Of a DNA stretch of 55,810 bases, positions 15,901-53,600 are shown piece by piece. A program made the translations under genes and the position numbers. A model generated the notes under the pieces. It was given only the letters and a program-made list of their open reading frames with translations, searched no databases and had not been told where the DNA came from. Within the stretch, counting starts at the first letter, position 1, and every line of letters starts with the position of its first letter. The stretch comes from a virus, in the IMG/VR virus record IMGVR_UViG_3300023174_000201, positions 1 to 55,810 of that record. One strand, written 5' to 3'.

Positions 15901-16590
15901 ACGGATACCTTTGGTCCAAATGATGGCGATTCACTTGGTCAGCAAAACCCAGTAACTGACGTAAGTAGCTATCAAGTATTTAATTCTGATAGTTTTACGC
16001 CAATTAAACATCACGAAGTTCCAGCAACAAAGTCTGCTGCTTGGGTAGTTTCTGATGTTCGCGGCACAGAGCCTTCCGATCCAATGGGCAAGGCCGATGA
16101 TCGCATCGACGTAACGGATAACAAAGGACCATATGCAATTACTACTCAGGATTCTGGCCCAACGGCTACTTTCCCAGATGGTAATAGCGCGGTTACTCGT
16201 CAAGCCGATCCAGTAGATCCTCAAAATAAGAGCTTCTATCACGATCAGAATAGTAATGAATTTTACCCAACTGGAGTTGATTCTAAGGATCACGCTTTTG
16301 GTGATGGTAATGATAGCACCGCTCATATTATGTCGGCTTTCAAACTGGCTGATACTGAGATCGAACTTGGCATTCTTGACGCTTCACAGAAGTATGCAAG
16401 AGTTGCTGAGCTTGAAAAAGCAGCGCCCGCAATTGTTGAGGCTTCACTGGCTTACGCTAATCGCGTTAAGACAGCGGGCCTTAAGAAGTCGGCGCGGACA
16501 GCTAAGAGGCTTCCGTCTCTAGTTAGGGAGGCAAGTACTGCTCCCGCAACAACTCAGGCAGAATCAGATGATTCCGCTCTGTTTATGTAA
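12907..16590 (+). CDS. Prohead protease / capsid maturation protein interrupted by an intein
   Basis: 1227 aa, of which 330 are an intein. The N-extein (1-189) carries a prohead-protease pattern: ARIRAISSRVNKNHDGWPS, a candidate catalytic His in FVDHHN (H109/H110) and the candidate catalytic Ser in GFSMG (S187). The C-extein starts at C520 with CDVERSVCNIC ... CNHV, a Cys cluster likely binding zinc, then YGIKFFEISAVFDPADETAL. Farther on come WKTAWMLWGGDSGRSWAES, a conserved phage segment, and a zinc ribbon (CDICGEIMDGPQCDVCG). A long acidic Ser/Thr/Asp tail follows that may act as scaffold. Ribosome site AAGAGGCG precedes the ATG. Spliced length would be about 897 aa. Family members cleave scaffold and capsid N-termini during head maturation; whether the tail is removed is unknown. 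Confidence 0.87.
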   Translation: MAFTKYASLEVSKVLEIKGSAERDASASLAKIAAFEDYRTEDGYLYARIRAISSRVNKNHDGWPSVELAGGQDVFDRHTSSTGGFTVNANANDQYGFSTFIGKPIFVDHHNSDPSRARGVIVDAKLHVDDHKTAAQKDSYYRDAPSNHTPPTWVELLLEVDAKSFPKLAKAIIDGSKNAKNGIDGFSMGCFVPGTPITLADGTQKPIEAIEVGDEVLTHTGKTEPVTFTMVKPHSGLIYNVKTFGQASPMRLTEEHPVWTKNGWVEAKDLVVGDHVLTPAMEGVGHPGNWAFARLLGYYLAEGNLGYDKKRFPDGRPVSVEWNFHVDEIEYVEEVRAALNELGYNMAGPYVKNSCASIRCNSSELAARFFEYGGKHSWGKKLHSEVLRWDTDNQRALLTAYFNGDGHYRNDGRNVEAGTASQTLAQQLQLIATRCDIRMTPPVKQHSPSAVTAGKRPKYVMQATLLDPKPQTLNNAHIDDEGLWRKITDISTMEYNGNVYNFDVEGDDSYVAADIAVHNCDVERSVCNICKNSATTPDEFCNHVRMKGAMCDYIDPETGHKTSKKSYEDCYGIKFFEISAVFDPADETALIREVRSNVKEASMNKFGPMSEYDKYFGGAGSAQKAKDSMIDQYGEEKGEEVFYATMNKKKNQKNASEGFAPPESVQNNARRGLEMVEAGEAGDGLESATKGRAHDIASGKALSLDHVKRMHSFFERHDKTRPDDGGKGNSPWKTAWMLWGGDSGRSWAESVVGKEVGHDKSEKTSNDKPQITKTRAPEEVDTLREDKVCDICGEIMDGPQCDVCGYEAEPEGFGDPDLSAAKKHDESEEESKESLSTLDVDTNNLPTLSHVTDTGWNTSDVKVAQINRTEKPVLPARRQPASNEPKDRVVKDQKRPDTSSVRTASDFIAVATNQKRNNMETHTADAMTSAPAVAKPDYHTDVEGTGGVGGASNEEASKANAQVNLTDIGGVSGVGTGDEKTVQVDQGDEHSKNIEAIHTDTFGPNDGDSLGQQNPVTDVSSYQVFNSDSFTPIKHHEVPATKSAAWVVSDVRGTEPSDPMGKADDRIDVTDNKGPYAITTQDSGPTATFPDGNSAVTRQADPVDPQNKSFYHDQNSNEFYPTGVDSKDHAFGDGNDSTAHIMSAFKLADTEIELGILDASQKYARVAELEKAAPAIVEASLAYANRVKTAGLKKSARTAKRLPSLVREASTAPATTQAESDDSALFM
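13474..14463 (+). other. Intein with LAGLIDADG homing endonuclease inside the prohead protease
   Basis: Residues 190-519 of the protease frame. Splicing blocks are intact: first residue Cys190 (CFVPGTPITLADG), block B TEEHPVW, block F VYNFDVEGDDSYVA and block G AVHN before Cys520. Two LAGLIDADG helices are visible, LLGYYLAEGNL and LLTAYFNGDGHY, each with an acidic residue. Both splicing and DNA cleavage therefore look competent. The insertion lies three residues after the candidate catalytic Ser (S187-M-G), and its +1 Cys is the first Cys of a CxxxxxxCxxC cluster, so the host protein should be inactive until spliced. Confidence 0.93.
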
Positions 16591-18468: not shown

Positions 18469-19389
18469 TTATAAATTATTTGGATGTCTAAGGGCATACT
18501 CTGAACTAGGCCTTAAATCAGATTGCCATCTTGAAGGATTAGCTCCCGATGTATCAAACCTAATACCAGCAACATGCATGTATACATGACCCGAATTAGC
18601 GTAAACCGTAATCCATTTACCCGGCCCTGACTGACCCCAAGACATTAGTGATCCTGAATCCATTGGAGTATTGATCAGATCTGCTCCATGAAGGGCATAT
18701 GATACTGATCCTGAACAGTCGTAGCCAGAATCTAAAAAAGATCCATGCCCGCCTCCCCATACATATGGAAGCGCATTGATCTTGTTTCCGGCCCACACAA
18801 CTCGCTTAACATTAATTGGAGCTTTAGATGGGGCGTAGGCTACATTTTTATATATAAGAGCCTTAGAACCTACTACAACAGGTTTGAAAGGATCTTTAAT
18901 AAGGCTGATCGACGCCCTTACTCGGATCTTCTTTGTTTTAATCTTCCATTTATATGTGTAAAAATGAACAACGGGATTATTCCATGCCGACATCTGATTT
19001 CCACAATGAAGCCAAATATCAAGTTCAGAACCCCAACCGATATGATCTTCAACCCTAAAATAATGCTTACCATAAATGGCTTTAGGGAAATAAATCCTCG
19101 TTCCTAATGGAAGGAAATTATTGGCAACTTCGCCAAAACGAGGCGTTGTTCCCATTGATGTAATATTGCCGCCACCTGAAGCATCACAGCCTTCAGTTGA
19201 ATATGCGGTTGCTCTGACGGAAAAGTGCTGAATTGGCACTCTTACGCGGTACTTCTTTGTTTTTGTTACTACAGGACCCGGAATTGTAGTAATGTGGGCC
19301 TGATTATTAACAGCTTTCGCTGGTTCTGGGGTAGATGCAAAACTACCGATTACGGCGGCTACTACAACCGCTGTTTTAGCATATAACAT
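18469..19389 (-). CDS. Secreted 3D-domain + NlpC/P60 cell-wall hydrolase
   Basis: 306 aa, minus strand. Start set at MLYAKTAVVV (19389) because AAGGAAG lies 5 nt upstream; a 7-residue-longer start at 19410 has no such site. The N-terminus is a signal peptide (hydrophobic AVVVAAVIGSFA, likely cut after PAKA). Residues 55-135 form a 3D / RlpA-like double-psi barrel (RATAYSTEGCDASGG, then TSMGTTPRFGEVA, FRVEDHIGWGSELDIWL). Residues 205-290 form an NlpC/P60 domain with nucleophile C225 in YDCSGS and H268 in SGHVYMH, likely a peptidoglycan endopeptidase. It sits alone on the opposite strand between capsid and connector genes, like an independently expressed lysis gene. Endolysin or wall-remodelling enzyme; no holin seen nearby. 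Confidence 0.9.
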   Translation of the reverse strand: MLYAKTAVVVAAVIGSFASTPEPAKAVNNQAHITTIPGPVVTKTKKYRVRVPIQHFSVRATAYSTEGCDASGGGNITSMGTTPRFGEVANNFLPLGTRIYFPKAIYGKHYFRVEDHIGWGSELDIWLHCGNQMSAWNNPVVHFYTYKWKIKTKKIRVRASISLIKDPFKPVVVGSKALIYKNVAYAPSKAPINVKRVVWAGNKINALPYVWGGGHGSFLDSGYDCSGSVSYALHGADLINTPMDSGSLMSWGQSGPGKWITVYANSGHVYMHVAGIRFDTSGANPSRWQSDLRPSSEYALRHPNNL

Positions 19390-19518
19390 AATATCTTCCT
19401 TGGAACACATTCATTTGTCCTACATTGACTTCGCAAGCCCTCTTACTTAACAACTTAACGGGCTGAATGAGACCAGTGGAATTAACTCCTTCTGTCGATT
19501 TATATAAAAAGCCAAACG

Positions 19519-23573: not shown

Positions 23574-26500
23574 ATGTCACTAAACTATAGAACACCCGGA
23601 GTAAACGTTAAAGAGTATTCTACTAATAACGTATCCCCCCTTATTGTAACATCTGATACGGTCTGCTTAGTTGGACCTGCACCCGGACTTATTGAGCGTA
23701 CCGAAGTTGTCACTCTAAACGGTTCTTCTACACCTGTGACCGTTACTGCTGTAAATAATCAAAACGGCACTACCGCAGCATTTCGAACCGCAAATGCTCA
23801 TAACCTGCAAACGGGTTTTCAAGTAAAAGTTCAGGGATTTTCGCCTGATACTTTTAATGGAGTTTATACAGTTGTTTCTGTTCCTGACCCTAACAATTTT
23901 GTTATTGATTGTATGGTAACTGATGCCGTAGCAACATTTGGTACATACTACAACGTATCCACCATTCCATTCGTTTACGAAACCGATCCAACTACAGCGG
24001 TAATGACTGCTTCAAGCATTAAATCTGTCAAAGCGGTTGATCCAACTCGCGCAAAAAACACTGCTTCAAATTATAACACGACCTCCGGATATGTTTCCGG
24101 TTCATACAAATTTGACCCAGTAACTCATACCCTTTCACGCAACAACCCCGTTCCTACTGCAACCCTTTCAACTGCACTTGACACAACCACTACCACTGTT
24201 GTTGCCAAGGGCGATCCCGATGGATTTGATACATACGGAACAATCCTTATTGACAGCGAAGAAATTACATATTCTTCAAAAAGTTTTAGTGGCGAACAGC
24301 AAACTGTTACCGTTAATCCAGTATCAAATCCCGGTGGTTCTACAGTTGCCGTCGCGGTTGCGTCCGATATTACCAATTTAACAGTTGCTACTACTGCCGG
24401 TAGTACCTCTGCTAATTTAAATGATCCGGGCACCCTTGCTATTAACACAACTTATACAATTTCTTCTAGCGCAATTCCCTCCGCTAATAATATTACATTT
24501 ACTACTGGTGGTAGTGTTGCTGCTACATCTTATACCGTTACTGGTGTGACGGTCGGATCAACTGGCACAACTGTTACCAAATCCGGAGGTTCCAGTTTTA
24601 CTTCTGCATTAGTCGGGGCCAAAATTATTGTTGGCGCACAAGCTAGAACTGTTGTAAGTATAACAGATACAAATACATTGGTCACAGATACAGCTTTTAG
24701 CCCTGCTATTACTTCGGGTACCTCGTTAACCAGTATCACTTATTTTCCAATCACGCTCTCTTCCGGCACTGGTGTCACCACTGGTACTAACTCAGCAGCA
24801 ACAATTGGTACTTCAAGAGTACTAAAAGGTGTAACTACAAACTTTACATCAGATATGGTTAACGGCAATATTAATGTTGCAAGTGCGGATTACACTATCG
24901 CCAATGTAATTAGTGGAACTTTAGCGGTTCTTGCAACTGCACCCGGAGTTTCTATTACCGCTACAAGTACATATACTATCAAGAAACCATACACGTTAAC
25001 ATTCAGTGATACCACCCTTGGTAATAATACAACGACCACAACAACGCAGATTCTTCCTCTTGCAACTGCCGCTAACATTAAAAGTGCATTAGCCGCTCTT
25101 ACAAGCGTAGGCGGAACTAGCAATGTTGCCGTTACTGGTAGTGCCCAAACCGGGTACGTAGTAACATTCCAAGGTGCGCTTGACGGAACAAATGTTGCAG
25201 CTATGACAGCCAGCATTACAGATGTTACAATTGCAGCAGCCGATGGTACGTTTAGTTTTCTTAATTGTGTTCGCGCTGCCAATGGTACCACCGCTGCTAC
25301 ACATTCTGTTAGCCCCACTCCCGCTTCAATTACTCAAACTACTCTTATTGCAGACGGAGCAGATGTGTATGTTAACTTTACATACACTCCCGGCGATTAC
25401 TTTAATGGACTTAGATTTACTAATGTTAATGATGTTGAGCGTCGTTATGGACCGGCTTACAAAGTTGTTAACCGTGTTGTAACTTCTAATATTGGCTCGC
25501 CCTTAACCCTTGCGGCAAGTCTTGCTTTTGAAAATGGTGCAACTGACGTTGTTATTCAACCAATTTTCTCAGTTAGCGGTAGTACTAAGTCTGCTCCAAC
25601 TAATGCTGAGATTACAAATGGTAGCGCTTGGCGAAACGCCTTAGAATCACTTAGGGCGGTCGAAGGTATTGGCACTATTGTCCCTGTGGTTGGTCAAACA
25701 AAATCATATAATTACGGTTCATCAACAGCATACTCACTTACCGATCAAGGTTTACTTTCAATTCTTCAATCTGTACAGGACCACATTCATTATCAACAAA
25801 CATATAATGATCAATACCTTGTGGGCGTTTTTGGAGAAGATGGCACAGACTCACCTTCTGGAAGTAGCTATGCAACGCCTGATACTTTAAGGACTCACGC
25901 TCAAATTCTCAAGGGCCGTTACGATGGCGCACACGCAGAGTCAATAGTGCTACTGTCACCCTCTCAGTTTGAGCGTTCGCTATCAAGCGGCACCGGTAAA
26001 GTACAACTTGGCGGTCAGTACGCAGCAGCAGCAATTGCTGGCATGATTGCTTCGCGCCCAGTATCTTCTACTCTTACACGCAGGTTTATTTCAGGATTTG
26101 ATAATGTCCTTGTTTCAAGGAATAAGGCTGATAAAATTACTGATTCTAGCTATGGCCTATTTGTTATTGAACAGATTGGTCGCGCAATTCAAGTAAGGCA
26201 TGCGATTACACTTGACGATAGTAACTCAGCAAGGCAGGAATTATCAGTGGTCAGGGCCAAGCATAAGGTTATTAACTCCCTTAGGTCAACAATCGATACC
26301 CAAATTATCGGTAAGATTGTTGCTGATAATGGTGCGGCCATTGTTGTAGCTTCGGCTGTGGCCAACACCCTTTCAATACTTGTCAACAACGGAGACATTG
26401 TAGCGTTTGGAAACGTTCAATCAAAAATTGTAACACTCAGTCCAACAGTTATTGAAGTAAGGTTCTCTTATAGGCCATCCTTCCCAGTCAACTACGTTGA

Positions 26501-26582
26501 TATCGCATTCTCCATCGACCTTACTGGTGGCAGCGCGAGCTTAGCAGATACAACAAACAACATTAACTCAGGAGCAATCTAA
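23574..26582 (+). CDS. Contractile tail sheath protein with nested inserted modules
   Basis: 1002 aa, about 350-500 longer than usual sheaths. It starts NYRTPGVNVKEYSTNNVSPL, the typical sheath N-terminus. The core resumes after about residue 590 (YFNGLRFTNVNDVERRYGPA) and ends with ALESLRAVEGIGTIVPVVGQ, SRPVSSTLTRRFISGFDNVL, LRSTIDTQIIGKIVADNGA and the beta-strand tail VEVRFSYRPSFPVNYVDIAF-like. Between residues 56 and 590 lie inserted beta modules: an NLQTGFQVKVQGF module (56-125) and a nested group (196-580) detailed in the findings. Ribosome site AAGGAG lies 11 nt before ATG. Sheath subunits stack on the tube and contract to drive it through the host wall. The inserts probably decorate the tail surface. 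Confidence 0.92.
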   Translation: MSLNYRTPGVNVKEYSTNNVSPLIVTSDTVCLVGPAPGLIERTEVVTLNGSSTPVTVTAVNNQNGTTAAFRTANAHNLQTGFQVKVQGFSPDTFNGVYTVVSVPDPNNFVIDCMVTDAVATFGTYYNVSTIPFVYETDPTTAVMTASSIKSVKAVDPTRAKNTASNYNTTSGYVSGSYKFDPVTHTLSRNNPVPTATLSTALDTTTTTVVAKGDPDGFDTYGTILIDSEEITYSSKSFSGEQQTVTVNPVSNPGGSTVAVAVASDITNLTVATTAGSTSANLNDPGTLAINTTYTISSSAIPSANNITFTTGGSVAATSYTVTGVTVGSTGTTVTKSGGSSFTSALVGAKIIVGAQARTVVSITDTNTLVTDTAFSPAITSGTSLTSITYFPITLSSGTGVTTGTNSAATIGTSRVLKGVTTNFTSDMVNGNINVASADYTIANVISGTLAVLATAPGVSITATSTYTIKKPYTLTFSDTTLGNNTTTTTTQILPLATAANIKSALAALTSVGGTSNVAVTGSAQTGYVVTFQGALDGTNVAAMTASITDVTIAAADGTFSFLNCVRAANGTTAATHSVSPTPASITQTTLIADGADVYVNFTYTPGDYFNGLRFTNVNDVERRYGPAYKVVNRVVTSNIGSPLTLAASLAFENGATDVVIQPIFSVSGSTKSAPTNAEITNGSAWRNALESLRAVEGIGTIVPVVGQTKSYNYGSSTAYSLTDQGLLSILQSVQDHIHYQQTYNDQYLVGVFGEDGTDSPSGSSYATPDTLRTHAQILKGRYDGAHAESIVLLSPSQFERSLSSGTGKVQLGGQYAAAAIAGMIASRPVSSTLTRRFISGFDNVLVSRNKADKITDSSYGLFVIEQIGRAIQVRHAITLDDSNSARQELSVVRAKHKVINSLRSTIDTQIIGKIVADNGAAIVVASAVANTLSILVNNGDIVAFGNVQSKIVTLSPTVIEVRFSYRPSFPVNYVDIAFSIDLTGGSASLADTTNNINSGAI
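24160..25310 (+). other. Nested beta-module insertion inside the sheath gene
   Basis: Protein-level reading: a module with YGTILIDSEEITYSSK (24160-24280) is interrupted and its matching end, CVRAANGTTAATHSV, appears only at 25254-25300. Inside lies a second module (ITNLTVATTAGSTSANL, 24369-24519), itself interrupted and resumed at 24747 (PITLSSGTGVTTGTNSAATI). The inner inserts have SFTSALVGAKIIVGAQ and NFTSDMVNGNINV type sequences plus a YTLTFSDTTLGN ... VTFQGALDG domain. The boundaries are approximate. Confidence 0.7.
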
Positions 26583-31706: not shown

Positions 31707-32555
31707 ATGAGCGAAACCCCTTATAAAGATAAAAAATCGTATCCTGTTGGCCCAAACAGTATTTTAAATAATCCCATTGATACGGGTTATGGTGTTACGA
31801 CGCCTAATATTTCTGCTGATAAAAGTTCGTCATGGAATGTGCTTCTTGAAACAAACGAAGGGGTTTATATCAAATTATGGGCTGAAGATATACAAATGGA
31901 TTTTGCAATGGCTGGTTCAACTGGACAGAGCCGATTTAGAAATCAGTTTTATCCAAAATCTTTTAATCAACCTAAATTACAAGTTTCAGGCAGAATGCCA
32001 AATCAATATGAATATAATAGATTAGCTAATTTTGTTAGAGAAAATCATATGCAGGTGCTTTCGGGTGTAGAAGTTAAAGCTCCAATTGGACAGCAAACAG
32101 TTCAAGCTCCAGTTATTAAATTATTTATTAGAGGAAATTCATTAAAAACTTATAAAAATGTCAAAGGTGGTCATAAAGCTCATTCATTTGAAGGGTACAT
32201 TTCAAACATTCAAGCTGGAGCAATCAAATTTAATTTTGCTCCGGAGTTCAAATTTGAATTTATTCCACTCAAATCAAAATTTAATGGACAGTATGGATTA
32301 TATGACGATCAACTTTTAACTAAAGGGATTCAAATTTTAAGTTATATGGATTTATTTAATAAAAATAAAAAAGCTTGGGGTGTTCAAGAGGCTGACGATT
32401 TTGCCGCTCAAGATGCTGAAGTGTTACGTAGGGCGCGTGAAGAAGGAAATGCGCTTGATCCCGGTTTAGCCCCCTCAGTAGAACCACCGCCCGCCTCAGA
32501 CGAATTAAATCCTCCAGAAAATACAGATTCAAGCAATTTAGATCGAATTCAATGA
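31707..32555 (+). CDS. Tail-tip / inner baseplate protein
   Basis: 282 aa. Core segments SWNVLLETNEGVYIKLWAED, FYPKSFNQPKLQVSGRMPNQ and AHSFEGYISNIQAGAIKFNF (residues 42-195) resemble the previous gene product in layout, so the two may be distant paralogues. The C-terminus is an acidic/Pro-rich tail. The stop overlaps the first hub paralogue (ATGA), indicating coupled translation and probably assembly with the hub. Confidence 0.72.
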   Translation: MSETPYKDKKSYPVGPNSILNNPIDTGYGVTTPNISADKSSSWNVLLETNEGVYIKLWAEDIQMDFAMAGSTGQSRFRNQFYPKSFNQPKLQVSGRMPNQYEYNRLANFVRENHMQVLSGVEVKAPIGQQTVQAPVIKLFIRGNSLKTYKNVKGGHKAHSFEGYISNIQAGAIKFNFAPEFKFEFIPLKSKFNGQYGLYDDQLLTKGIQILSYMDLFNKNKKAWGVQEADDFAAQDAEVLRRAREEGNALDPGLAPSVEPPPASDELNPPENTDSSNLDRIQ

Positions 32556-33898
32556 AAAGATTAGTTTATGCGCCGCAAATCAATGTTTGGGTAAAATCAG
32601 ATACGGGAATTTTTGATTTAAGCTCCTATGTTACCTCGTTTAACGTTCATAGACGAGTAAATGCAGTCAGCGCTGCGGAAGTTACATTTCGTAATCCAAA
32701 AGTTGAAGGCCTTGATGGAGAGCCTCGATTTATGTTTACTCAACATCCGGTGTCAAATGAGGGCAAATCCATTTCATATGAACCCATGTTTCATCCCATG
32801 GATCCCATTATTATTACTTTAACTAGGTTGAAAGGTTACCCAGTTCAAGTTTTTACTGGTTACTGTGATACTACGCCTTATGTTCAAATGTATCCGGGTA
32901 CTGCAAAGATAACCGCGTCCTGTACTTTAAAACGACTTAAATATACCTATTGGGATCCGGGCCTACCTTTTGTTTATGAGTATTTGGCTGCCCTCGGATG
33001 GATACCCGGTAAGGATGGCGGATTGGTGTTTAATCCAACGGCGGAAGCCGTAACCACAGCCACCGGAGATTTGGGATATGACAATTTAACCGATTCGTCT
33101 TTTGGGCACCTTGTTTATCGAATTTTACAAGACGTTGGAGGTTGGAATCATAATGACATTTACGTTCAAGGATTACCGGCTGAAGCAATTGATAAAATTG
33201 TTGATGGTATTTATAATGATTTAACTGGCGATGCCAAAGCCAATTTTAAAGATGTTAGTAAATTTTTAAGGAAAGTTATTGGTACTACCACTGTCGGTGG
33301 TGCGGTTAGTGGAGGGGATGCAGGAAATACTGGAAATACCGGAGGCGGTGGAGACGATACTGGTGCTGGCGGAGGTGGAGGAAATGAACCAAGTCATATG
33401 AACAAATTTATTCCTAGAAATGGCAACGGAAGAAATTATTGGGGCGACCGACCGGGAGATCCTAAAATTATTGTTTTACATGCCACAGAAGGAACCAATT
33501 TAACTGGAACCACAGACCTTGATATTCTCAAACAAGTTTTGATGGAACAAGGTCTGTCGGTTCACGTTGGAATTGATGGCGAAGGAAATTCTGCTAAATA
33601 TGTTAATGGCAGTAAAAAAGCATATCACGTTGCTGCATATAATGGCGTGGCCCTTGGCATTGAACAAATTGGCTCATCAGATCAAACTTCATGGCCCGAT
33701 AAACAAGTAAATAAAGCCGCTGAATGGATTGCTTATTGGTCAAAGGAATATAACATTCCAATTCAAAGGTCTACATCTAGAGGGGTGTGCAGTCACGCCG
33801 ACTTAGGAGATCGGGGAGGTAATCACGGAGATCCGGGGTCTGGTTATCCTTGGGATAAAGTATTAAAAAAGGCTAAAGAAATTAGAGACAGTCAATGA
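32552..33898 (+). CDS. Baseplate hub paralogue 1 fused to N-acetylmuramoyl-L-alanine amidase
   Basis: 448 aa. Residues 1-240 are the hub-like domain shared with the next two genes (RLVYAPQINVWVKSDTGIFD, VQVFTGYCD, DVGGWNHNDIYVQGLP). It resembles the first half of gp27/late-control-D type hubs. A Gly-rich linker (250-285) leads to an amidase_2/PGRP-type domain (about 290-448). Likely zinc ligands are H310 in IVLHATEG, H415 in VCSHADLG and D427 in GDPGSGYPW. Such enzymes cut the bond between MurNAc and L-Ala of the stem peptide. Coupled to its neighbours by ATGA overlaps on both sides. Confidence 0.88.
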   Translation: MKRLVYAPQINVWVKSDTGIFDLSSYVTSFNVHRRVNAVSAAEVTFRNPKVEGLDGEPRFMFTQHPVSNEGKSISYEPMFHPMDPIIITLTRLKGYPVQVFTGYCDTTPYVQMYPGTAKITASCTLKRLKYTYWDPGLPFVYEYLAALGWIPGKDGGLVFNPTAEAVTTATGDLGYDNLTDSSFGHLVYRILQDVGGWNHNDIYVQGLPAEAIDKIVDGIYNDLTGDAKANFKDVSKFLRKVIGTTTVGGAVSGGDAGNTGNTGGGGDDTGAGGGGGNEPSHMNKFIPRNGNGRNYWGDRPGDPKIIVLHATEGTNLTGTTDLDILKQVLMEQGLSVHVGIDGEGNSAKYVNGSKKAYHVAAYNGVALGIEQIGSSDQTSWPDKQVNKAAEWIAYWSKEYNIPIQRSTSRGVCSHADLGDRGGNHGDPGSGYPWDKVLKKAKEIRDSQ

Positions 33899-35058
33899 AA
33901 AGGTTAGTTTATGCACCACAAGTCAATGTTTGGATTAAAACAGAAACCGGAATTTTTGATTTAAGCCCTTACGTTACTGATTTCTCAATTCATCGAAAAG
34001 TTGATGCTATAAGTTCGGCATCAATTACATTTCGTAATCCAAAAGTTGAAGGTTCTGATGGAGAACCTAGGTTTATGTTCACGCAGCATCCGGTGTCAAA
34101 TGTCAATGGTGACATTTCATATAAACCGATGTTTTATCCAATGGACCCAATTATTATTACTTTAACTAGGTTGAAAGGTTACCCAGTTCAAGTTTTTACT
34201 GGTTACTGTGATAAAACCCCTTACATACAACTGTATCCGGGCGTAAGTCAATTGACGGCCTCTTGTAGTTTAAAGAAATTAAAATACACTTATTGGGATC
34301 CGGGTTTGCCTTTTGTTTATGATTATTTAAAATCCCTTGGTTGGATTCCGTCAAAAGACGGCGGATTGGCGTATAATCCAAAAACTATGAACAATGTTCC
34401 TGACAGCACGTTATTAAACGATAGTTCTTTTGGACATTTAGTTTATCGAATTTTACAAGATATCGGAGGTTGGGATCATAACGATATTTATGTTCAAGGA
34501 TTGCCTAGTTCAGCAATTAATAACATTGTTGATGGTATTTACACTGATTTAACTGGCGATGCCAAAGCCAATTTTAAAGATGTAAAAGATTTTCTTAATA
34601 AGGTTATTGGTACAACAACTGTTGGTGGTGCTGCCGGAGGCGGAAATAATTCAGGAAACACTGGAGGTGGAGGTGGCGCTGCGGGAACCAGTAATCTTCC
34701 GCCTTATGCTGGAGAGCAAGGCAAGCTCACGCCATCTGAAGCAAAGGCCGCTGCTAGGTCGATGCTTAAAGATTTTGGTTGGCCGGAAAGTGAATTTTCG
34801 CCACTTGAAAGTTTATGGGAGCATGAATCTAATTGGAAGTGGGATGCGCTAAATAGCAGTTCTGGAGCGTATGGCATCCCGCAATCTAAACCGGCAAATA
34901 AAATGGGAAGGCGGTCAGAAGGAGGAGGCCCAGATTATTTGACTAATGCGGTGACTCAAATAAAGTGGGGACTAACATATATTAAAAATAGATCCGATTA
35001 CGGTTCGCCCTCGGCTGCTTGGGATAAATGGCAGTCTAGAAATCCACATTGGTATTAA
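33895..35058 (+). CDS. Baseplate hub paralogue 2 fused to lytic transglycosylase
   Basis: 387 aa. Residues 1-235 are the same hub domain as paralogue 1 (long stretches of identical DNA). A Gly/Asn-rich linker is followed by an SLT-like domain (270-387) with catalytic Glu E311 in WEHESNWKWDALN, then SSSGAYGIPQSKPANKMG, QIKWGLTYIKNRSDYGSPS and AAWDKWQSRNPHWY. The ending is typical of actinobacterial lysozyme/transglycosylase domains and is one of the best host clues here. The reaction would be cleavage of the MurNAc-GlcNAc bond of the host wall during infection. Confidence 0.88.
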   Translation: MKRLVYAPQVNVWIKTETGIFDLSPYVTDFSIHRKVDAISSASITFRNPKVEGSDGEPRFMFTQHPVSNVNGDISYKPMFYPMDPIIITLTRLKGYPVQVFTGYCDKTPYIQLYPGVSQLTASCSLKKLKYTYWDPGLPFVYDYLKSLGWIPSKDGGLAYNPKTMNNVPDSTLLNDSSFGHLVYRILQDIGGWDHNDIYVQGLPSSAINNIVDGIYTDLTGDAKANFKDVKDFLNKVIGTTTVGGAAGGGNNSGNTGGGGGAAGTSNLPPYAGEQGKLTPSEAKAAARSMLKDFGWPESEFSPLESLWEHESNWKWDALNSSSGAYGIPQSKPANKMGRRSEGGGPDYLTNAVTQIKWGLTYIKNRSDYGSPSAAWDKWQSRNPHWY

Positions 35059-35059
35059 A

Positions 35060-36346
35060 ATGAAAAGATTAGTTTACGCGCCACAGGTTAACGTTTGGAT
35101 TAAAACGGACACAGGAATTTTTGATTTAAGTTCTTACATTACAGATTTTTCAGTTCATAGACAAGTGAATGCAATTAGTTCTGCACAAATAAAATTTCGT
35201 AATCCTAAAGCTGAGGGACCTGATGGAGAGCCACGTTTTATGTTCACGCAACACCCTACGTCAAATGCAGACGGGACGACTTCTTATAGTCCTATGTTTC
35301 ATCCAATGGATCCAATTGTTATTAGCTTAACTAGATTAAAAGGTTATCCGGTGCAAGTTTTTACCGGTTACTGTGATTCTTCACCATATGTTCAATTGTA
35401 TCCCGGATTAGCTCAAATGACGGCTTCTTGTAGTTTAAAGAAACTTAAACATACTTATTGGGATCCGGGGCTACCTTTTGTTTCTGATTATTTAGAGGCC
35501 TTGGGTTGGAAGCCAACTAAAGATGGCGGATTAACTTTTAATCCAACGGCGGAACAGTCGGCTAATTCTGGAGTGACAGACACATCTTTTGCATATTTAA
35601 TTTATAGAATTCTTCAAGACGTTGGAGGTTGGAATCATAATGACATTTACGTTCAGGGGCTACCATCTGAAGCCATACAAACCATTGTTACGGGAATTTA
35701 TACGCAATTAACTGGGGATGCCAAGGCCAATTTTAAAGATGTTAGTAGTTTTCTTGACAAAGTAATTGGGGCCACAACCGTTGGTGGTGCCGCCGGTAAT
35801 GCTAGCGGTGGCGGAGGAGGCGGAGGTGTTTCACCAAATACGGGTACAAATGATACAAGTGGCGACAACGGGATATTAGGCGGACCATTTCCAGTTGGAC
35901 AAGAAAAAGTTATTACCGCCACCACCTTTTATAGGGGACCGGATATGGGAGGCGCTTTTAAATATTCCGGATTTCGTACCCCGGACGGTGTTATTCCCGG
36001 TGGTGAGTATCCGGGAACTACTCCCAATCGCGGTCATTGGTGGGCAGAACCATCGGTTAATCCAGATGTTGTTGATGGCAGCGCAATGGGAAACCTTCCC
36101 GCTGGCACCCCTGTTAAAATTACATATAAAGGTAAATCAATTATTGCTAGAAAAGCAGATATTGGCGCAGGAGGATCAACGCCTATGGGTGGACACCCAG
36201 ATTGTATGGATATTTTTGAACATGGTGCCCGCACCCTTGGATTAACTCCAGACGTAGGCGGGGTAGGTAAAGATGTTGTTAAAGTTACCGTGCTTAATGA
36301 AACTATGGTCAAAGAATTAAGAAGAACAAATAAGGTAATTTGGTAA
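35060..36346 (+). CDS. Baseplate hub paralogue 3 fused to RlpA-like double-psi barrel
   Basis: 428 aa. Hub domain 1-235 as in the two preceding genes, but more diverged. A Gly/Ser linker is followed by a domain (280-428) with MGNLPAGTPVKITYKGKSII, an Asp in RKADIGAGG (D367) and another in MDIFEHGARTLGL (D384), the layout of RlpA/3D-type double-psi barrels. Some of these are lytic transglycosylases; others only bind glycan. Start 2 nt after the previous stop (TAAAATG). Enzymatic activity is not established by sequence alone. Confidence 0.82.
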   Translation: MKRLVYAPQVNVWIKTDTGIFDLSSYITDFSVHRQVNAISSAQIKFRNPKAEGPDGEPRFMFTQHPTSNADGTTSYSPMFHPMDPIVISLTRLKGYPVQVFTGYCDSSPYVQLYPGLAQMTASCSLKKLKHTYWDPGLPFVSDYLEALGWKPTKDGGLTFNPTAEQSANSGVTDTSFAYLIYRILQDVGGWNHNDIYVQGLPSEAIQTIVTGIYTQLTGDAKANFKDVSSFLDKVIGATTVGGAAGNASGGGGGGGVSPNTGTNDTSGDNGILGGPFPVGQEKVITATTFYRGPDMGGAFKYSGFRTPDGVIPGGEYPGTTPNRGHWWAEPSVNPDVVDGSAMGNLPAGTPVKITYKGKSIIARKADIGAGGSTPMGGHPDCMDIFEHGARTLGLTPDVGGVGKDVVKVTVLNETMVKELRRTNKVIW

Positions 36347-36369
36347 TTATTAAATTTTATAAAAATCAC

Positions 36370-36379
36370 ACAGTTAATA
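36370..36379 (+). promoter_or_regulatory. ACAGTTAATA element (second copy)
   Basis: Exact copy of the 20659 10-mer, 5 nt before an ATG at 36385 (a 3-codon mini-ORF, MAI) and 13 nt before the annotated start 36393. It lies in the only gap (46 nt) between the hub paralogues and the M23-hub gene, where a new transcript would begin. Confidence 0.45.
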
Positions 36380-36392
36380 GAGAGATGGCAAT

Positions 36393-38111
36393 ATGACAAG
36401 AGCAGGAGAATCAGGCAGACAAGCAAATCCTAGATCGGTAACGGTACCACCGTCTACGTCTAAAAGTCAAATAAGCGAGCAAGATCGCAGTCATGTACAC
36501 AAGCCATTTAATCTTGCATCCGCTCCGCCAGTTGGCTCGCCATATGGCGATTATCCGCATACGCCCAGCAATCCTCATGAGCATAGAGGAAATGACTATA
36601 GCATGGGCATGGGAACAACTTTTTACGCTTTAGTAAAATCTAAAATTATTTATGCTGGGCCTTGGTATGACGAAGGAATGAACCTTATTGTTATCGAATC
36701 TCTTGAAGACAGAGGATATGCCCCTGATGGTAAGCGAGTTATTCAAAAAGGAGATCGATTTGGATATGGTCACGCTGAATCATATTCGGTGTCCGCAGGA
36801 CAAGAAGTTGAGGCCGGTAAACAGATTGGTAAAAGTGGTACCGCAGGAAGCGGGCCTCATTGTCATTTTTGGATGCAAAAGTATCCAAACCATCATACTG
36901 CTCCGGGTCGCGGAGTGTCCGGAGGTGGAACACAAGATGGTAACGTAGACCCCAAGAACGTTGTTACTTGGGCTTATGGAGGACGAGCCGCTTCTATTGA
37001 TGGCGATGGAGGTAGCGGCGGAGGCGCAAGTAGCGGAGGAGGTGGCGGAGGAGGAGGCGGAGGATCTGCTTACAACGCAGAACAAATTTCAAAAGCCTCT
37101 GCCTATTCTAGCATTCTTTCGATTCCGGGCGGTTTAAATAGTTTAGAATCTCGGTTTCTTACAGGTCAAAGAAGTTTGATGAATGATCAACCCCTACTGC
37201 CTTTTATTGAACAAATTTGCGGAGCCTCATTAAGAAGTTTTATGTCTATGCCTAACGGCAAATTTTATGCTTTTTATCCAGATTATTTTGGTGGATTTAA
37301 TAGACAACCATATTGGAATATTGCAGATGTAGAAATCATTAGCGGCAAAATTGATTTATCTGATGACACTTTGGCAACGCATGTTTTTGTTGTGGGTGAC
37401 ACAAATGCTGCTTATGGTGGACCAGCCGCCGGTTATGGCAGCATTGATCTTATGGATAAAATTCAAACAACTGGCGTAATTAATATTTTTAACGCTTTTG
37501 CAACCGGCTTCTTAAATGGAAAGACTGCGCAGGGTCAAGTTTTAGGAGAAAAGGATGCGGGCGCAAAAGGCAAAGGTCGAACCAAAACTAAAAAAGCAAA
37601 TAATGCAAACACAAATGGTAATTATTTACCAATGGGTGAAGATGCTCAACCAGATGAACTTACTCAAGACGGAGCAATAAATTTTTTGAAAAAGTACGGA
37701 GCAAGACCGGTTTATGAAGAGGTGCCCGCTATTAGATCGCCCATTTATGAAACATACTTGGCGTTTCAAAGATTTTGTATGCTTTGGGCTTCTCAATTTA
37801 AAACGACGTTTGAATTTACATTTATGCCTGAATTGTATCCCGGAGGGATTGTGGCATTTCCTGACCACGGATTACAATGTTACGTTGAAGAAGTTGTTCA
37901 TTCCGGTTCATATGAAAGTGGATTTACAACTATGGCTACGTTGTCTTCTCCTGCGGCGCTTAAAAATGCAGATGGCAATCCTGAGCAAGAGTGGGTTCAC
38001 TCTGGCATGATTCGTGCATTTGTAAATAATCCTGATAATTTCTCTAAACCAAAAATTAAAGCTGTTTCTCCGCCTAAGAAAAAACCCAAACCAAAGGGTA
38101 AGAAGTCTTAA
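36393..38111 (+). CDS. M23 metallopeptidase - baseplate hub fusion
   Basis: 572 aa. Residues 45-195 form an M23 (LytM-type) zinc endopeptidase: H64-x3-D68 in HEHRGND, H127 in YGHAES and the HxH at H156/H158 (GPHCHFWM). A Gly/Ser linker (200-228) leads to a hub-like C-terminal part (230-572) with FIEQICGASLRSFMSMPNGK, FYPDYFGGFNRQPYW, ADVEIISGKIDL and a Lys/Pro-rich basic tail. The C-terminal half looks like the missing second half of the hub whose first half is in the three preceding paralogues. M23 enzymes cut peptide cross-bridges of the wall. Confidence 0.87.
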   Translation: MTRAGESGRQANPRSVTVPPSTSKSQISEQDRSHVHKPFNLASAPPVGSPYGDYPHTPSNPHEHRGNDYSMGMGTTFYALVKSKIIYAGPWYDEGMNLIVIESLEDRGYAPDGKRVIQKGDRFGYGHAESYSVSAGQEVEAGKQIGKSGTAGSGPHCHFWMQKYPNHHTAPGRGVSGGGTQDGNVDPKNVVTWAYGGRAASIDGDGGSGGGASSGGGGGGGGGGSAYNAEQISKASAYSSILSIPGGLNSLESRFLTGQRSLMNDQPLLPFIEQICGASLRSFMSMPNGKFYAFYPDYFGGFNRQPYWNIADVEIISGKIDLSDDTLATHVFVVGDTNAAYGGPAAGYGSIDLMDKIQTTGVINIFNAFATGFLNGKTAQGQVLGEKDAGAKGKGRTKTKKANNANTNGNYLPMGEDAQPDELTQDGAINFLKKYGARPVYEEVPAIRSPIYETYLAFQRFCMLWASQFKTTFEFTFMPELYPGGIVAFPDHGLQCYVEEVVHSGSYESGFTTMATLSSPAALKNADGNPEQEWVHSGMIRAFVNNPDNFSKPKIKAVSPPKKKPKPKGKKS

Positions 38112-48855: not shown

Positions 48856-50691
48856 ATGGCAACTTATTCGGGTACCCCTGCAACTTTATCTGCTTCAAGC
48901 GTTCTATTTCATAGATTAACTCCTGACATTCAAAAACAAGTTGATTTACCTGAAAAAATTAGCAATCAATTAAGCGGAATCATTATTAATCAAAATGCGC
49001 CTTATTTTGATAGCAATAAAAATTTGATTAACATTAATTCATTAAATCAAATTTTAAATAATAATTACCCCATTTTTAAAACAGTTTTACAAGAATTCAA
49101 ATTACCAACAGATTTTAAAAGACGCAGTTCAACAGGAACGAGTCGCATTCCAAATTTTACAGGGTTTCAAATTCATTTGAATGCAAACACAGACAATTTT
49201 CAATTTTCGTACACTTTACAAGTTTATAACAAAGCAAAGGGTTGGCAGACGTTGTTAAAAGATATTGCAACGGGGTCTCAAAATGGAGACCAATGGTTTT
49301 TAATTAAATTTGCCCCATTTTCAATAGATGAACAATATCTAGATCAAAAATTTAGAATTTTTATTAAACCAATTTCTGGGATTGATATTTTTTATTTATC
49401 TTCAACAAATCCGTTTATATTAAACGATTGCTATTGTTACATTGATTCCGATTTAAATGACGCACAATTAAGTGGTAAAACAACTGCCAGTGATGTTAAA
49501 ACCGCTGCACTGATTTCTGGAGCGTTAAGATTTAGATTACTTGGAGATGTTGCAGACTCTGGAATTGACTTTTTAGGAAACTCTTACCGATCTTTGGTTA
49601 ATTCAACTGAGCACTCGGTAAAAAATGTTTTAGATTTAAATACCGATACTTACTGGTTATCAAAAGCAAATCCTTCTAAATACGCAGTTGAAAATTTATA
49701 TTTTGATTTGTCTTTTGAAACAACCATTGCCGCAATTTATTTAGATCCTGTGACTCCAAATATAAAATTTAATGTTTATTATTCTAATGAAGATCCGTCC
49801 TCTGAATCAATTGATGATTTGGATATGATATTGTGGAATAGGGTTCCAAAAGAATTTACTGCTACTAAAGCACAAAATTACATTTTTCCTAACCCTATAC
49901 ATGCACGATATTTAAAAATTGAATTTACGCATTTACAAGCGTCCAGTTATATATCTAGAGATTTTCAAAAACCAATTGTTTATAAAAAGCACCCCCAATG
50001 GGTTTTTGATTATTTTATTTCTTGGTATAATTTTCCAAAAGATCAAAGTTATAATCCGTTTACTTCAGAAATGATTGATGTTAATTTTGATGTTTTAAAT
50101 TTGGCTTATAATTATTATAAGGGAGACATTTTAGAAAGTTCAAATGGTGCCGAACTGACGTTGTTAGCAAACGACTCGGTTGCGGCATTAAATCAAAAGT
50201 TGACTACTTTTTTGACAACTACAAATGACAATATTAAAAATATTGATTCGGCAACATATTTTCAAATTAATACTGATTTAAATGCATTTTTTAACGTTCC
50301 GTCAGATAGAGGATTAAACAACGATCTTATTCACAGGGCGTCGGGCGCATCAATGGCGTCGGAAAATACAAGTAATTACCCAACTGAAGATTTGCCAATT
50401 ATAGCAGGCGACACTACAATTGTGTCAACAAAAGATCGAAATCATTTAATTCAAGAAAAAACCCTGCCTCAAATGTATTTTTTCTTGGAATGTCGTCATA
50501 AATATAGAGAGGCCATTGCAAAGTTAGAAGATGGTAAAGCTTATTTTGCAGGCGTTAAAGAAATTGCGTTTCAAAGATATGATCATTCCATTAAATCTGA
50601 CGACAGCATTTACATGTCAGTTGCCGGGGACACTTTGAATTTCATTCAAAACGATTTTAAATTTAGTAATTTAGGCTGGGTGGCCAAGTGA
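48856..50691 (+). CDS. Baseplate/fibre-associated protein with discoidin-like domain
   Basis: 611 aa. A beta-sandwich segment at about 270-375 (NLYFDLSFETTIAAIYLDPV, FNVYYSNEDPSSESI, IHARYLKIEFTHLQ) has the discoidin/F5-8 pattern seen at the end of the previous protein, so the two may pair or share a receptor type. N- and C-terminal parts are mixed helix/strand with few recognisable motifs (MYFFLECRHKYREAIAKLED near the end). It overlaps the next gene by 4 nt (GTGA). Confidence 0.74.
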   Translation: MATYSGTPATLSASSVLFHRLTPDIQKQVDLPEKISNQLSGIIINQNAPYFDSNKNLININSLNQILNNNYPIFKTVLQEFKLPTDFKRRSSTGTSRIPNFTGFQIHLNANTDNFQFSYTLQVYNKAKGWQTLLKDIATGSQNGDQWFLIKFAPFSIDEQYLDQKFRIFIKPISGIDIFYLSSTNPFILNDCYCYIDSDLNDAQLSGKTTASDVKTAALISGALRFRLLGDVADSGIDFLGNSYRSLVNSTEHSVKNVLDLNTDTYWLSKANPSKYAVENLYFDLSFETTIAAIYLDPVTPNIKFNVYYSNEDPSSESIDDLDMILWNRVPKEFTATKAQNYIFPNPIHARYLKIEFTHLQASSYISRDFQKPIVYKKHPQWVFDYFISWYNFPKDQSYNPFTSEMIDVNFDVLNLAYNYYKGDILESSNGAELTLLANDSVAALNQKLTTFLTTTNDNIKNIDSATYFQINTDLNAFFNVPSDRGLNNDLIHRASGASMASENTSNYPTEDLPIIAGDTTIVSTKDRNHLIQEKTLPQMYFFLECRHKYREAIAKLEDGKAYFAGVKEIAFQRYDHSIKSDDSIYMSVAGDTLNFIQNDFKFSNLGWVAK

Positions 50692-53600
50692 GTACATTTA
50701 AAACATTTAAAGAAGTTGCAACAGAAAATATAGAAATTGTCAATGACGCTTTTGTTAATGCAACGGGCGAGTGGAATAACTACGTTTGTTACCCTAGCAC
50801 AAACGGAGATGGGTCTCAAAACGATCAAATAAGTAAACAAAAACACACCGATATTAGATCGTTTCATAATGGTAAAAAAACTAAAAGGGGTATTTCATTT
50901 CTTACTAAGTCTACAATGGCTGAATTAGGATTAATTTTATGTAATACTACGTATCCAGATTTAATTGGTTCCTCAACATTAATCGCATCAGAAAATTGGC
51001 AAGGAACTAATTTGACTGTAGGTTTACAATCTGATCGAAACAATTGGAATGGAATTTCTGCCGTTTGTTCAAGCAATGCAACAAAAACATTTTATTCAAT
51101 ATCTCCTTCAAAAATAGATTTATCATCATACGATGATACATCCTTAGCCGGGGATTATATTACAATTTCTTGTCCCGTGTTGCCTCCGTTAAAAAAGAGT
51201 TTATCATCAATTGATTTTACTTCTGAAGTTGGTTTTGCTTCTGCCAATACAGATGTTATTAATTTAAGCAATTCTGATTTAACATATAAAAGTAACAAAA
51301 TTGATAAAATTAAAAATTACAGTTCATTAAAAACTTATTGGAGACTTGAAGAAACTAATATTACTAGCGTTAATGATGAAATTAATAATTTAATTAATGT
51401 TCGCGTTGCTACCACTGGGTCTGAGTCATATAACATTAATTATGGATCAGTTTTTTCAATAGCTGGAACCACAATTGATTCAATAACATTGAACGTTGGC
51501 GACATTATTTTAATTAAAAATGCTGGTATTCCAACAGATAGTAATGGTTATTATACAGTTTCAGGCAGTGAGTCTGCAACAACGAGTTCTTCAAGTTGTG
51601 CAAACGGAGTGTATGCTGTTACTGCAATATTAAACGGAAATATGATTGTGTCTCGCACAGTAGAAATGCTTTCATGGAATCAACTTCAAAATGCATATTT
51701 AGTAGTTTCTGAAGGAACAAATCAGAATGTATTTTGGATCACTGATTCTATTGGGTCTGGGAACGTAAACGAAACACCTATTACTTTTATTAAAAATTAT
51801 GTTGAAATTAAAGACGAATTTGATGTTAGTAACGGAGAACTTAGGGGATCAATTACATCAACTAATTTAGATCAAACCGGAGTTTTTTCAAGCAGTGCCT
51901 CAATTTACTTTGATGGAACAAGTAATTATATTAAAATTCCTTACACCTCTAATATTAATCCAACGGAGTCGTCGTTCACTGTGTCTGTTTGGTGTAAACC
52001 AGATTTTGCTAATTTAACTACTGGTTTAACTACTCCCGGAATAGATTTAAGATTAATTAGTAACGAAGGATATACAACCGGTTATGGCTTAGGAATTAAT
52101 TCTTTTACTAAAAAACCATTTTTTATACATTCGGGTGGAACGTTATCCACTAACACCGGAGCTAATCAAACCGTTACTGATAACGCTTGGAATTTAATTA
52201 CCGCAGTGTTTTCCACTACTGGCGCTGGGGTATCTTTGTATGTTAATGGAGTTATAGCGCGAAATCCCGGTACTAGCACAATTAAACCAAATGCAAAAAT
52301 TACAAATTTAAAAATAACTACGACTGCTGGTAGCACTTCAGCCACTCTAAGTGACACAACCGGATTAACAACTAATCAAACTTATAGTATTACGTCTTCG
52401 ACTATTTATCAAGGCACACCTACTACATTTACTACCAGTGGAACTTTAAGTAAATCAATCACTCTTTCTTCAAGCGCTGGTCTTAGTACGGGAACCTCAG
52501 ATGCAATTATACAAACGGGGTTTGGTTTTTATATTGGTGGGTTGCTTCCAAGTGGCGCAACCGCAAATGATAAAAAATTATTTAAAGGCAATATTGATGA
52601 AATTTCCATATTTAATACTGCTTTAAATGCAACTCAAATTTTAGATATTTACAACACATGTAAACCCGCAACTGAAGAAAACGTAGAAATTCAAATTCCT
52701 TTAAAATTATTAAACAAATCTACGTACACAAAAAATTTGGCAAATGAGACTATTTCAGATACCATTAAAGGTGTTAAATTTAATATTAATAATTCAACGG
52801 GTTCAAATTTTAATTTTCGTTGTTTAGCAATGAGGTGCGTTTCAAAGGATTGGATTTATTCTCCAATTGATTTACAAACTCAATTAGAAACCATTGGGTT
52901 ACAACCAACAACAAATGGATCTGCTTTGACAAGTATTGTTTCAAGCAATTTTACAAATTGGCCAACAAATACAAATTCAAGTAATCTTCCAACTCTATGG
53001 CCCGCACTTTTTAGATCTTATGAAAATAACCCAAGTACCTTTGATGTCCCGGATCCTATAGACGGAAAAATGCAGGTCACATTTAATACTGGCTCAGTTA
53101 GTAACGCAAGTTCAACCAATTCAAATGAATTCAATATTTATTTTAGAGCCACAACTAAAGGCGTTACTAACACTTATTTAAATACAAAAATGCAAACAGA
53201 ACTTGACGCCATTGGTGATATTGAAAATGTTTTGGAAGATTTAGAAAAATATAGGCAAAAAGATCATTCAATTATTCAAGGCAAATTGCCAATTACAAGA
53301 AGCACTCCGACGCCAACATCAGTAGCTGAATTACTGCGCACCTCTCCAACTTCTGATTTTCAGACTACCCCGGTCAGTACAACATTGGCTCAAGATTTAT
53401 CTAGTACTGAAACAACGAGCATAATTTTATCAAATGCAAGTAGTTTTCCAAATTCAGGAATTGTTTATATAAAATCACAATACCCTGAATATATTAAATA
53501 TTCTTCAAAATCAGGCAATACTTTATCCATTGCAACAAATGGACGAGGCCAATATAATACGGTTGCAGCCGCTCACACTACATCTTCCCCAGCGCATTTA

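What the first reader, a model, noticed from the sequence alone, without database searches (positions are those of the whole stretch)
32552..38111. Three tandem hub paralogues each carrying a different wall hydrolase, followed by a fourth hydrolase-hub fusion
Seen: three genes in a row share an N-terminal about 240-aa hub-like domain but end in an amidase, a lytic transglycosylase and a double-psi barrel. A fourth gene has M23 peptidase first and a hub-like half after it. Known: gp27-type hubs are homotrimers with one spike/lysozyme. Inference: the trimeric hub here could be a heterotrimer delivering three chemically different wall-cutting enzymes, or three alternative tails. This would be an unusual multi-enzyme penetration device for a thick actinobacterial wall.
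Basis: partly seen in the sequence, partly recalled or inferred. Interest (0 to 1): 0.85.

Follow-up and report, generated by a model that had tools for sequence, protein, structure and literature searches.

The report
Split phage hub, three enzyme subunits
A virus of (probably) actinobacteria has cut the protein ring at its tail tip into two halves and keeps three versions of one half, each armed with a different wall-cutting enzyme, so that a single particle may carry several kinds of cutter at once; this is seen in seven related uncultured viruses but in none of the cultured relatives searched.

Summary
Three tandem genes (32552-36346) share a 240-aa domain (76-77% identical) and end in an Amidase_2, an SLT-type transglycosylase and a double-psi-barrel domain. 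The fourth gene (36393-38111) is M23 peptidase plus a hub part. In cultured mycobacterial, Gordonia and Rhodococcus myophages that protein (PHROG 2810) is one chain: hub-N, enzyme, enzyme, hub-C. Here it is cut between the two enzymes, and the N-half is triplicated.

The layout 3N+1C recurs in seven distinct uncultivated genomes, counted over whole contigs. Enzymes are swapped freely while the count stays at three, and one genome keeps the third N-half with no enzyme. Side lineages have 2N+3C, a split pair plus a fused hub, or 1N+1C; never more than three of either half, the subunit number of known hub rings.

Best reading: a trimer of N.C pairs in which the three N-halves mix, so one virion carries several N-side enzymes plus M23. 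This is inferred; complex assembly could not be tested. New variant of a known kind (multi-enzyme hubs), with a functional parallel in T6SS VgrG heterotrimers.

The parts
32552..33898 (+). Hub N-half paralogue 1 (aa 1-250) + Gly-rich linker + Amidase_2 (aa 302-429)
   Evidence: PHROG 2810 positions 47-260, 120.9 bits; Amidase_2 61.2 bits
33895..35058 (+). Hub N-half paralogue 2 (aa 1-245) + linker + SLT-type transglycosylase (aa 283-387)
   Evidence: PHROG 2810 positions 47-263, 122.4 bits; PHROG 12661 transglycosylase E 1.7e-24; Pfam SLT 20.5 bits, just under cut-off; ATGA overlap with the gene before
35060..36346 (+). Hub N-half paralogue 3 (aa 1-243) + linker + double-psi-barrel domain (about aa 290-428)
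   Evidence: PHROG 2810 positions 47-263, 128.7 bits; DPBB by similarity to a DPBB_1-positive relative; AF2 of the N part resembles contractile-injection hub/spike chains
36347..36392 (.). 46-nt gap before the shared C-half gene; a gap of 18-54 nt is present here in all seven 3N+1C loci and absent (-1 to -16 nt) in the other split loci
   Evidence: no clear difference in Shine-Dalgarno strength
36393..38111 (+). M23 peptidase (aa 63-163, HxxxD and HxH present) + Gly-rich linker + hub C-half (aa 228-525), single copy
   Evidence: M23 44.5 bits; PHROG 2810 from position 631, 196.8 bits; C-half profile aa 228-525; one copy per record; motifs

Best explanation
The four genes encode one tail-tip hub of a contractile-tailed actinophage. 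The ancestral one-chain hub (hub-N, enzyme 1, enzyme 2, hub-C) was cut between its two enzymes into N-enzyme 1 and enzyme 2-C. The N piece was then triplicated and each copy took a different enzyme. In the virion the ring is rebuilt as three N.C pairs. All three N paralogues share the single C partner, so the ring is mixed, most simply N1.C + N2.C + N3.C. One particle would then carry one amidase, one transglycosylase, one double-psi-barrel domain and three M23 peptidases. After sheath contraction these would cut different bonds of the wall around the tube. Shown: the split, the triplication, the enzyme identities (double-psi barrel indirectly), conservation in relatives, purifying selection. 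Inferred: N.C re-association, presence of several N paralogues in one ring, enzyme activity, order of use.
For: Complementary halves: the triplet matches PHROG 2810 positions 47-263, the fourth gene from 631 on; 88 one-chain relatives carry N and C in one ORF with a 326-798 aa insert; I3 gp141 is hub-N, lysozyme-like, NlpC/P60, hub-C. Where tails match one-chain inserts, lysozyme-type tails mostly fall early (0.16-0.28 of the insert; one case at 0.51 in a three-enzyme insert) and M23/NlpC parts late (0.63-0.85), as a cut between enzymes predicts. Intermediates exist: split pair plus fused hub, 2N+3C, 1N+1C. Fold: the one-chain model matches Milano baseplate hub gp26 (E 2.1e-5, prob 1.00); the window N-half model matches spike/hub chains of contractile injection systems (E 2e-3, prob 1.00) and Mu-type gp44-like 3cdd. 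Exactly 3 N and 1 C in the whole record of all seven distinct genomes, including 127-, 132- and 97-kb contigs. All copies under purifying selection (window dN/dS 0.13-0.21, dS about 1). One genome (3300032285_003220) keeps an enzyme-less N-half (246 aa) as conserved as its armed siblings. Enzymes change while the count does not. A gap precedes C only in the 3N+1C loci, as independent translation of a subunit needed in threefold dose would predict.
Against: No complex could be predicted and no virion data exist. The N-halves are similar enough that random mixing or homotrimers are also possible. The 2N+3C, 2N+2C and 1N+1C genomes show that three N-halves are not obligatory in the family. Within a lineage the N-halves mostly cluster together, so the count of three may be one inherited state kept by gene conversion rather than repeated convergence. 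Shine-Dalgarno strength gives no stoichiometry signal. The C-side M23 motif is lost in several relatives.
Confidence: 0.6

Rival explanations
1. Alternative tips: each virion carries a homotrimer of one N paralogue (with C), so a burst contains three kinds of particle, a bet-hedging scheme for hosts with different walls.
For: N-halves share one C partner and are 76-77% identical; enzymes are exchanged freely, as expected for interchangeable heads.
Against: An enzyme-less N-half is kept under the same constraint as its siblings, odd for an alternative tool. Genes overlap in one cluster with no sign of switching. Homotrimers would need strong self-recognition between very similar domains.
Confidence: 0.15
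2. Random mixing (a sub-case of the mixed ring): N-halves are interchangeable and rings are assembled statistically (1:1:1, 2:1 and 3:0 mixtures), with no fixed positions.
For: Region aa 81-140 differs only 11-17% between paralogues of a genome; within-genome clustering of N-halves suggests homogenisation; 2N genomes exist.
Against: The count of exactly three in seven genomes, the kept enzyme-less copy, and slot-specific residues shared by orthologues (14 and 13 three-state sites in two genome pairs) fit fixed slots slightly better.
Confidence: 0.25
3. Ordinary gene duplication: only one N paralogue is used in the virion; the others are recent or decaying copies, or act as separate lysins.
For: Tandem duplication with domain exchange is common in phage tail genes (general knowledge, not tested here); metagenome contigs are uncultivated.
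Against: dS about 1 with dN/dS about 0.15 between copies and intact frames in all seven genomes: old and constrained, not decaying.
Confidence: 0.06
4. Assembly or annotation artefact.
For: All 3N loci are metagenome assemblies.
Against: Same layout in seven divergent contigs from several different data sets, with different enzymes; intact overlapping frames.
Confidence: 0.01

Closest known systems
One-chain hub of cluster C-type and related actinophage myoviruses (PHROG 2810; I3 gp141, Pupper gp123, Phrappuccino gp82, Rhodococcus phage E3 gp119)
   Same: Same N and C hub halves, same place after the tape measure region and before the wedge genes, wall enzymes between the halves
   Different: One gene, one chain, so each subunit carries the same enzymes; here two kinds of gene with three versions of the N part
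Anabaena myophage A-1(L) hub gp15 (PMC10966104)
   Same: Trimeric hub around the spike with two hydrolytic activities shown biochemically
   Different: Single gene, homotrimer; sequence relation to this family not tested
Heterotrimeric VgrG spikes of type VI secretion (Vibrio cholerae; PMC8668125)
   Same: Trimeric gp27-like device in which paralogues with different C-terminal domains are needed together, including one without an extension
   Different: Bacterial secretion system; hub and spike fused in VgrG; no split hub; not a phage tail. In Aeromonas the need for heterotrimers was traced to effectors rather than to the VgrG ring
T4 gp27-gp5, Mu gp44 and Milano gp26 hubs
   Same: Hub fold by structure comparison
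   Different: One hub gene each; C3-symmetric hub in Milano (PMC10811340)

Membership tests
PHROG 2810-type actinophage hub | N-terminal hub part matches the profile | tested here: met
   120.9-128.7 bits for the three N-halves
PHROG 2810-type actinophage hub | C-terminal hub part matches the profile | tested here: met
   196.8 bits for the fourth gene
PHROG 2810-type actinophage hub | Both parts in one polypeptide, single gene copy | tested here: not met
   3 N genes and 1 C gene
PHROG 2810-type actinophage hub | Wall enzymes lie between the two hub parts | tested here: met
   N-enzyme and enzyme-C, i.e. the same order with a cut
gp27/gp44-type baseplate hub | Hub fold | tested here: met
   One-chain homologue model to Milano gp26 E 2.1e-5; window N-half model to contractile-injection hub/spike chains E 2e-3
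gp27/gp44-type baseplate hub | Forms a trimeric ring | not testable with these tools
   No complex prediction available
T6SS heterotrimeric VgrG | Hub and gp5-like spike fused in one VgrG protein | tested here: not met
   No VgrG or gp5 match in Pfam for the four proteins
T6SS heterotrimeric VgrG | Different paralogues present in one trimer | not testable with these tools
   Needs co-purification or a structure
Multi-hydrolase homotrimeric hub (A-1(L) gp15 type) | All enzymes on one identical subunit | tested here: not met
   Enzymes distributed over three N paralogues and one C gene

The most novel reading that the evidence does not exclude
An obligate, ordered heterotrimeric hub: three N-half paralogues occupy fixed positions around one common C-half ring, so the tail tip has no threefold symmetry and each virion carries exactly one copy of each of three different wall enzymes plus three M23 peptidases.
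Probability: 0.35. Interest if true: 0.82.

Novelty: new variant of a known kind. Interest (0 to 1): 0.68.

Why it matters
Phage hubs with structures known to me are homotrimers, so every virion carries the same tip enzymes three times. A hub split in two, with three differently armed versions of one half, would let one particle attack several bonds of the wall, and would show in phages the mixed-tip principle known from type VI secretion. It also gives a natural series (one-chain, one-chain plus split pair, 1N+1C, 2N+3C, 3N+1C) for studying how a symmetric ring becomes asymmetric, and a natural scaffold on which wall-lysing domains are swapped.

Tried and rejected
Four complete hub paralogues: rejected, because the fourth gene matches the other end of PHROG 2810. 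Stoichiometry from ribosome-binding sites: Shine-Dalgarno energies show no pattern; only the gap before C separates the groups. AF2 of the window's third N gene (alignment of 25) gave a good N barrel but left the double-psi-barrel tail unmodelled (pLDDT about 30), so the barrel rests on sequence similarity. Sequence profiles of both hub halves and of the barrel tails against PDB sequences gave nothing useful. The 408-column Milano alignment is too short to span both hub halves across the 440-aa insert, so it is not used as proof that N and C pack together. Three further collection scans found no more split loci. Paper searches for a split or heterotrimeric phage hub found none. The gene after the hub looked spike-like by eye but did not match its positional counterpart in Phrappuccino.
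Full report
WHAT IS THERE. The four ORFs are at the coordinates given. The three first proteins begin with a common domain of about 243 residues, 76-77% identical, followed by Gly/Ser-rich linkers and unrelated tails. Tail 1 is Amidase_2 (61.2 bits). Tail 2 is an SLT-type transglycosylase (PHROG 12661, E 1.7e-24; Pfam SLT just below cut-off; by eye it keeps the ES...GAYGIPQ motif). Tail 3 has no direct profile match but is 44% identical over 55 aa to the tail in the same slot of contig 3300010158_000117, which passes Pfam DPBB_1. The fourth protein is M23 with HxxxD and HxH present, then a hub part.

THE KEY FACT. PHROG 2810 is a 952-aa virion structural protein family. The three common domains match positions 47-263, the fourth protein matches from 631 on. 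The proteins are therefore two halves of one protein. In cultured relatives it is one chain: I3 gp141 (948 aa), Pupper gp123, Phrappuccino gp82. In I3 the insert holds a lysozyme-like stretch and NlpC/P60. tblastn of the N-half finds 211 phage records with 213 places, and of the C-half 211 records with 211 places, all Mycobacterium, Gordonia, Rhodococcus, Mycolicibacterium and one Eggerthella phage, so no cultured phage there has the triplet.

SURVEY. Six scans of viral contigs and one of genome contigs, with the loci of the first four analysed by profiles of each half, gave 88 one-chain hubs and 10 distinct split loci. Seven are 3N+1C: the window, 3300023174_000373, 3300032332_001535, 3300010158_000117 (same hub layout and sizes as 3300028393_000035), 3300023179_000029, 3300032285_003220 and 3300032242_002920. 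The others are 2N+3C (3300027983_000014), a split pair plus a fused hub (3300027969_000050) and 1N+1C (3300027741_000027). Profile searches of whole records confirm exactly three N and one C in the 3N genomes, including contigs of 127, 132 and 97 kb. The later scans added no further split locus.

EVOLUTION. In one-chain hubs the insert is 326-798 aa (median 412). Lysozyme-type tails of split proteins mostly match the early part of the insert, M23 and NlpC parts the late part. The fused hub of 3300027969_000050 carries lysozyme-like and M23 parts in that order. So the cut lies between enzyme 1 and enzyme 2. The N-half tree groups window N1-3 (100/100). It keeps slot-by-slot orthology in two close genome pairs, in one of them with the first two genes swapped in order. 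The 2N genomes form their own pairs. So duplication of N happened more than once, or was followed by homogenisation of the N domain within genomes. Copies are old and constrained (window dS 0.8-1.2, dN/dS 0.13-0.21).

ENZYMES CHANGE, THE COUNT DOES NOT. Enzymes found on N-halves: amidase, amidase+SLT, a GDSL-like stretch with amidase, a GDSL-like stretch with a VanY-like one (both below cut-off), NlpC/P60-like, SLT and SLT_3, M23, two types of double-psi-barrel-like tail. Orthologous N-halves carry different tails, and tails are closer between lineages than the N domains: the 3300032242 N2 tail is 59% identical to 3300023179 N1 but 35% to 3300010158 N2; the 3300032332 N3 tail is 55% identical to 3300023174 N2, while its orthologue in 3300010158 has another barrel type. 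In 3300032285_003220 the first N-half has no enzyme at all (246 aa, clean 9-nt junction to the next gene), yet it is as conserved relative to its orthologue as its armed siblings (dN 0.10 against 0.10 and 0.13). This is the best sequence argument that the N domain itself is needed as a third subunit. The M23 head of C keeps its motif in the window; in 3300023174 the HxH is lost while an M23 domain sits on N1; in several others no motif remains.

STRUCTURE. AF2 of the fused homologue (935 aa, 94 sequences) gives both hub parts mostly at pLDDT above 90. Foldseek matches include Milano baseplate hub gp26 (8fqc_C1, E 2.1e-5; identity of the chain) and contractile injection system chains 7b5h_AJ and 7aef_q. 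The window's third N protein matches the same two at E 2e-3, prob 1.00, with MuSo2 43-kDa tail protein 3cdd and a VgrG-complex entry further down. In Milano the hub has C3 symmetry (PMC10811340). In A-1(L) a trimeric hub carries two active hydrolases (PMC10966104). The fold and the trimer precedent are thus supported; the trimer in this phage is not tested.

MECHANISM AND STOICHIOMETRY. A tail has one hub ring (established for this kind of tail). The four genes overlap or nearly touch on one strand, so all are probably made together. The only partner for three N-halves is one C-half. In every 3N+1C locus, and only there, a gap of 18-54 nt precedes the C gene, while N genes overlap or abut (-76 to +9 nt). 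That would fit independent, higher translation of a subunit needed in three copies, but ribosome-site strength does not show it. A one-chain hub with two enzymes gives six enzyme domains per tip; the split hub gives the same six positions with diversified N-side enzymes (inference). V. cholerae VgrG spikes are the functional precedent, including an unarmed VgrG2 that is essential (PMC8668125). The same paper traces the heterotrimer need in Aeromonas to effectors rather than to the ring, which would correspond here to the random-mixing rival.

HOST. The window's major capsid protein is 55-58% identical to Gordonia and Rhodococcus phages. Genome-contig hits are Solirubrobacter, Streptomyces and one lake MAG filed as gammaproteobacterial. 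Together with about 40% GC an actinobacterial host of lower GC is likely but not shown.

VERDICT. Membership: it belongs to the PHROG 2810 hub family by both halves but fails the one-chain feature, so it is a variant. It works like a mixed VgrG tip but is not a VgrG. Heterotrimer: favoured, not proven. The confidence of 0.6 is for any mixed ring (fixed or random, the random sub-case listed apart at 0.25); the fixed 1:1:1 order is put at 0.35.

Noticed in passing
window 12907-16590: A 1227-aa head-module protein contains Hint/intein-splicing and LAGLIDADG matches (about aa 187-519), i.e. a probable intein with homing endonuclease inside a protein matching PHROG 2774 and weakly a head maturation protease.
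   Followed up: no
window 23574-26582: Tail sheath protein of 1002 aa whose sheath match covers only aa 576-990; a long N-terminal part has no match.
   Followed up: no
window 18469-19410 (-): The only long minus-strand gene between capsid and tail genes; weak NlpC/P60 match below cut-off, perhaps an endolysin.
   Followed up: no
window 48856-54815: Two large tail genes with F5/8 type C and Laminin_G_3 carbohydrate-binding matches, probable receptor-binding fibres.
   Followed up: no
L052 6156-12949: Related contig with the opposite layout: two hub N-halves and three hub C-halves (M23, M23-like just under cut-off, NlpC/P60-like) in one overlapping run.
   Followed up: partly
L057 4320-9837: Related contig holding a split N/C pair and a fused one-chain hub side by side; its split C-half has an unclassified head domain.
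   Followed up: partly
L119 9001-12225: One-chain hub with GDSL-like, SLT-like and M23-like parts in one insert, and an extra insertion inside the N domain itself.
   Followed up: partly
L045 8398-9927 and L007 5544-6758: In this relative the M23 of the C-half gene lacks HxH, while another M23 domain sits on the first N-half: the activity seems to have moved between subunits.
   Followed up: partly
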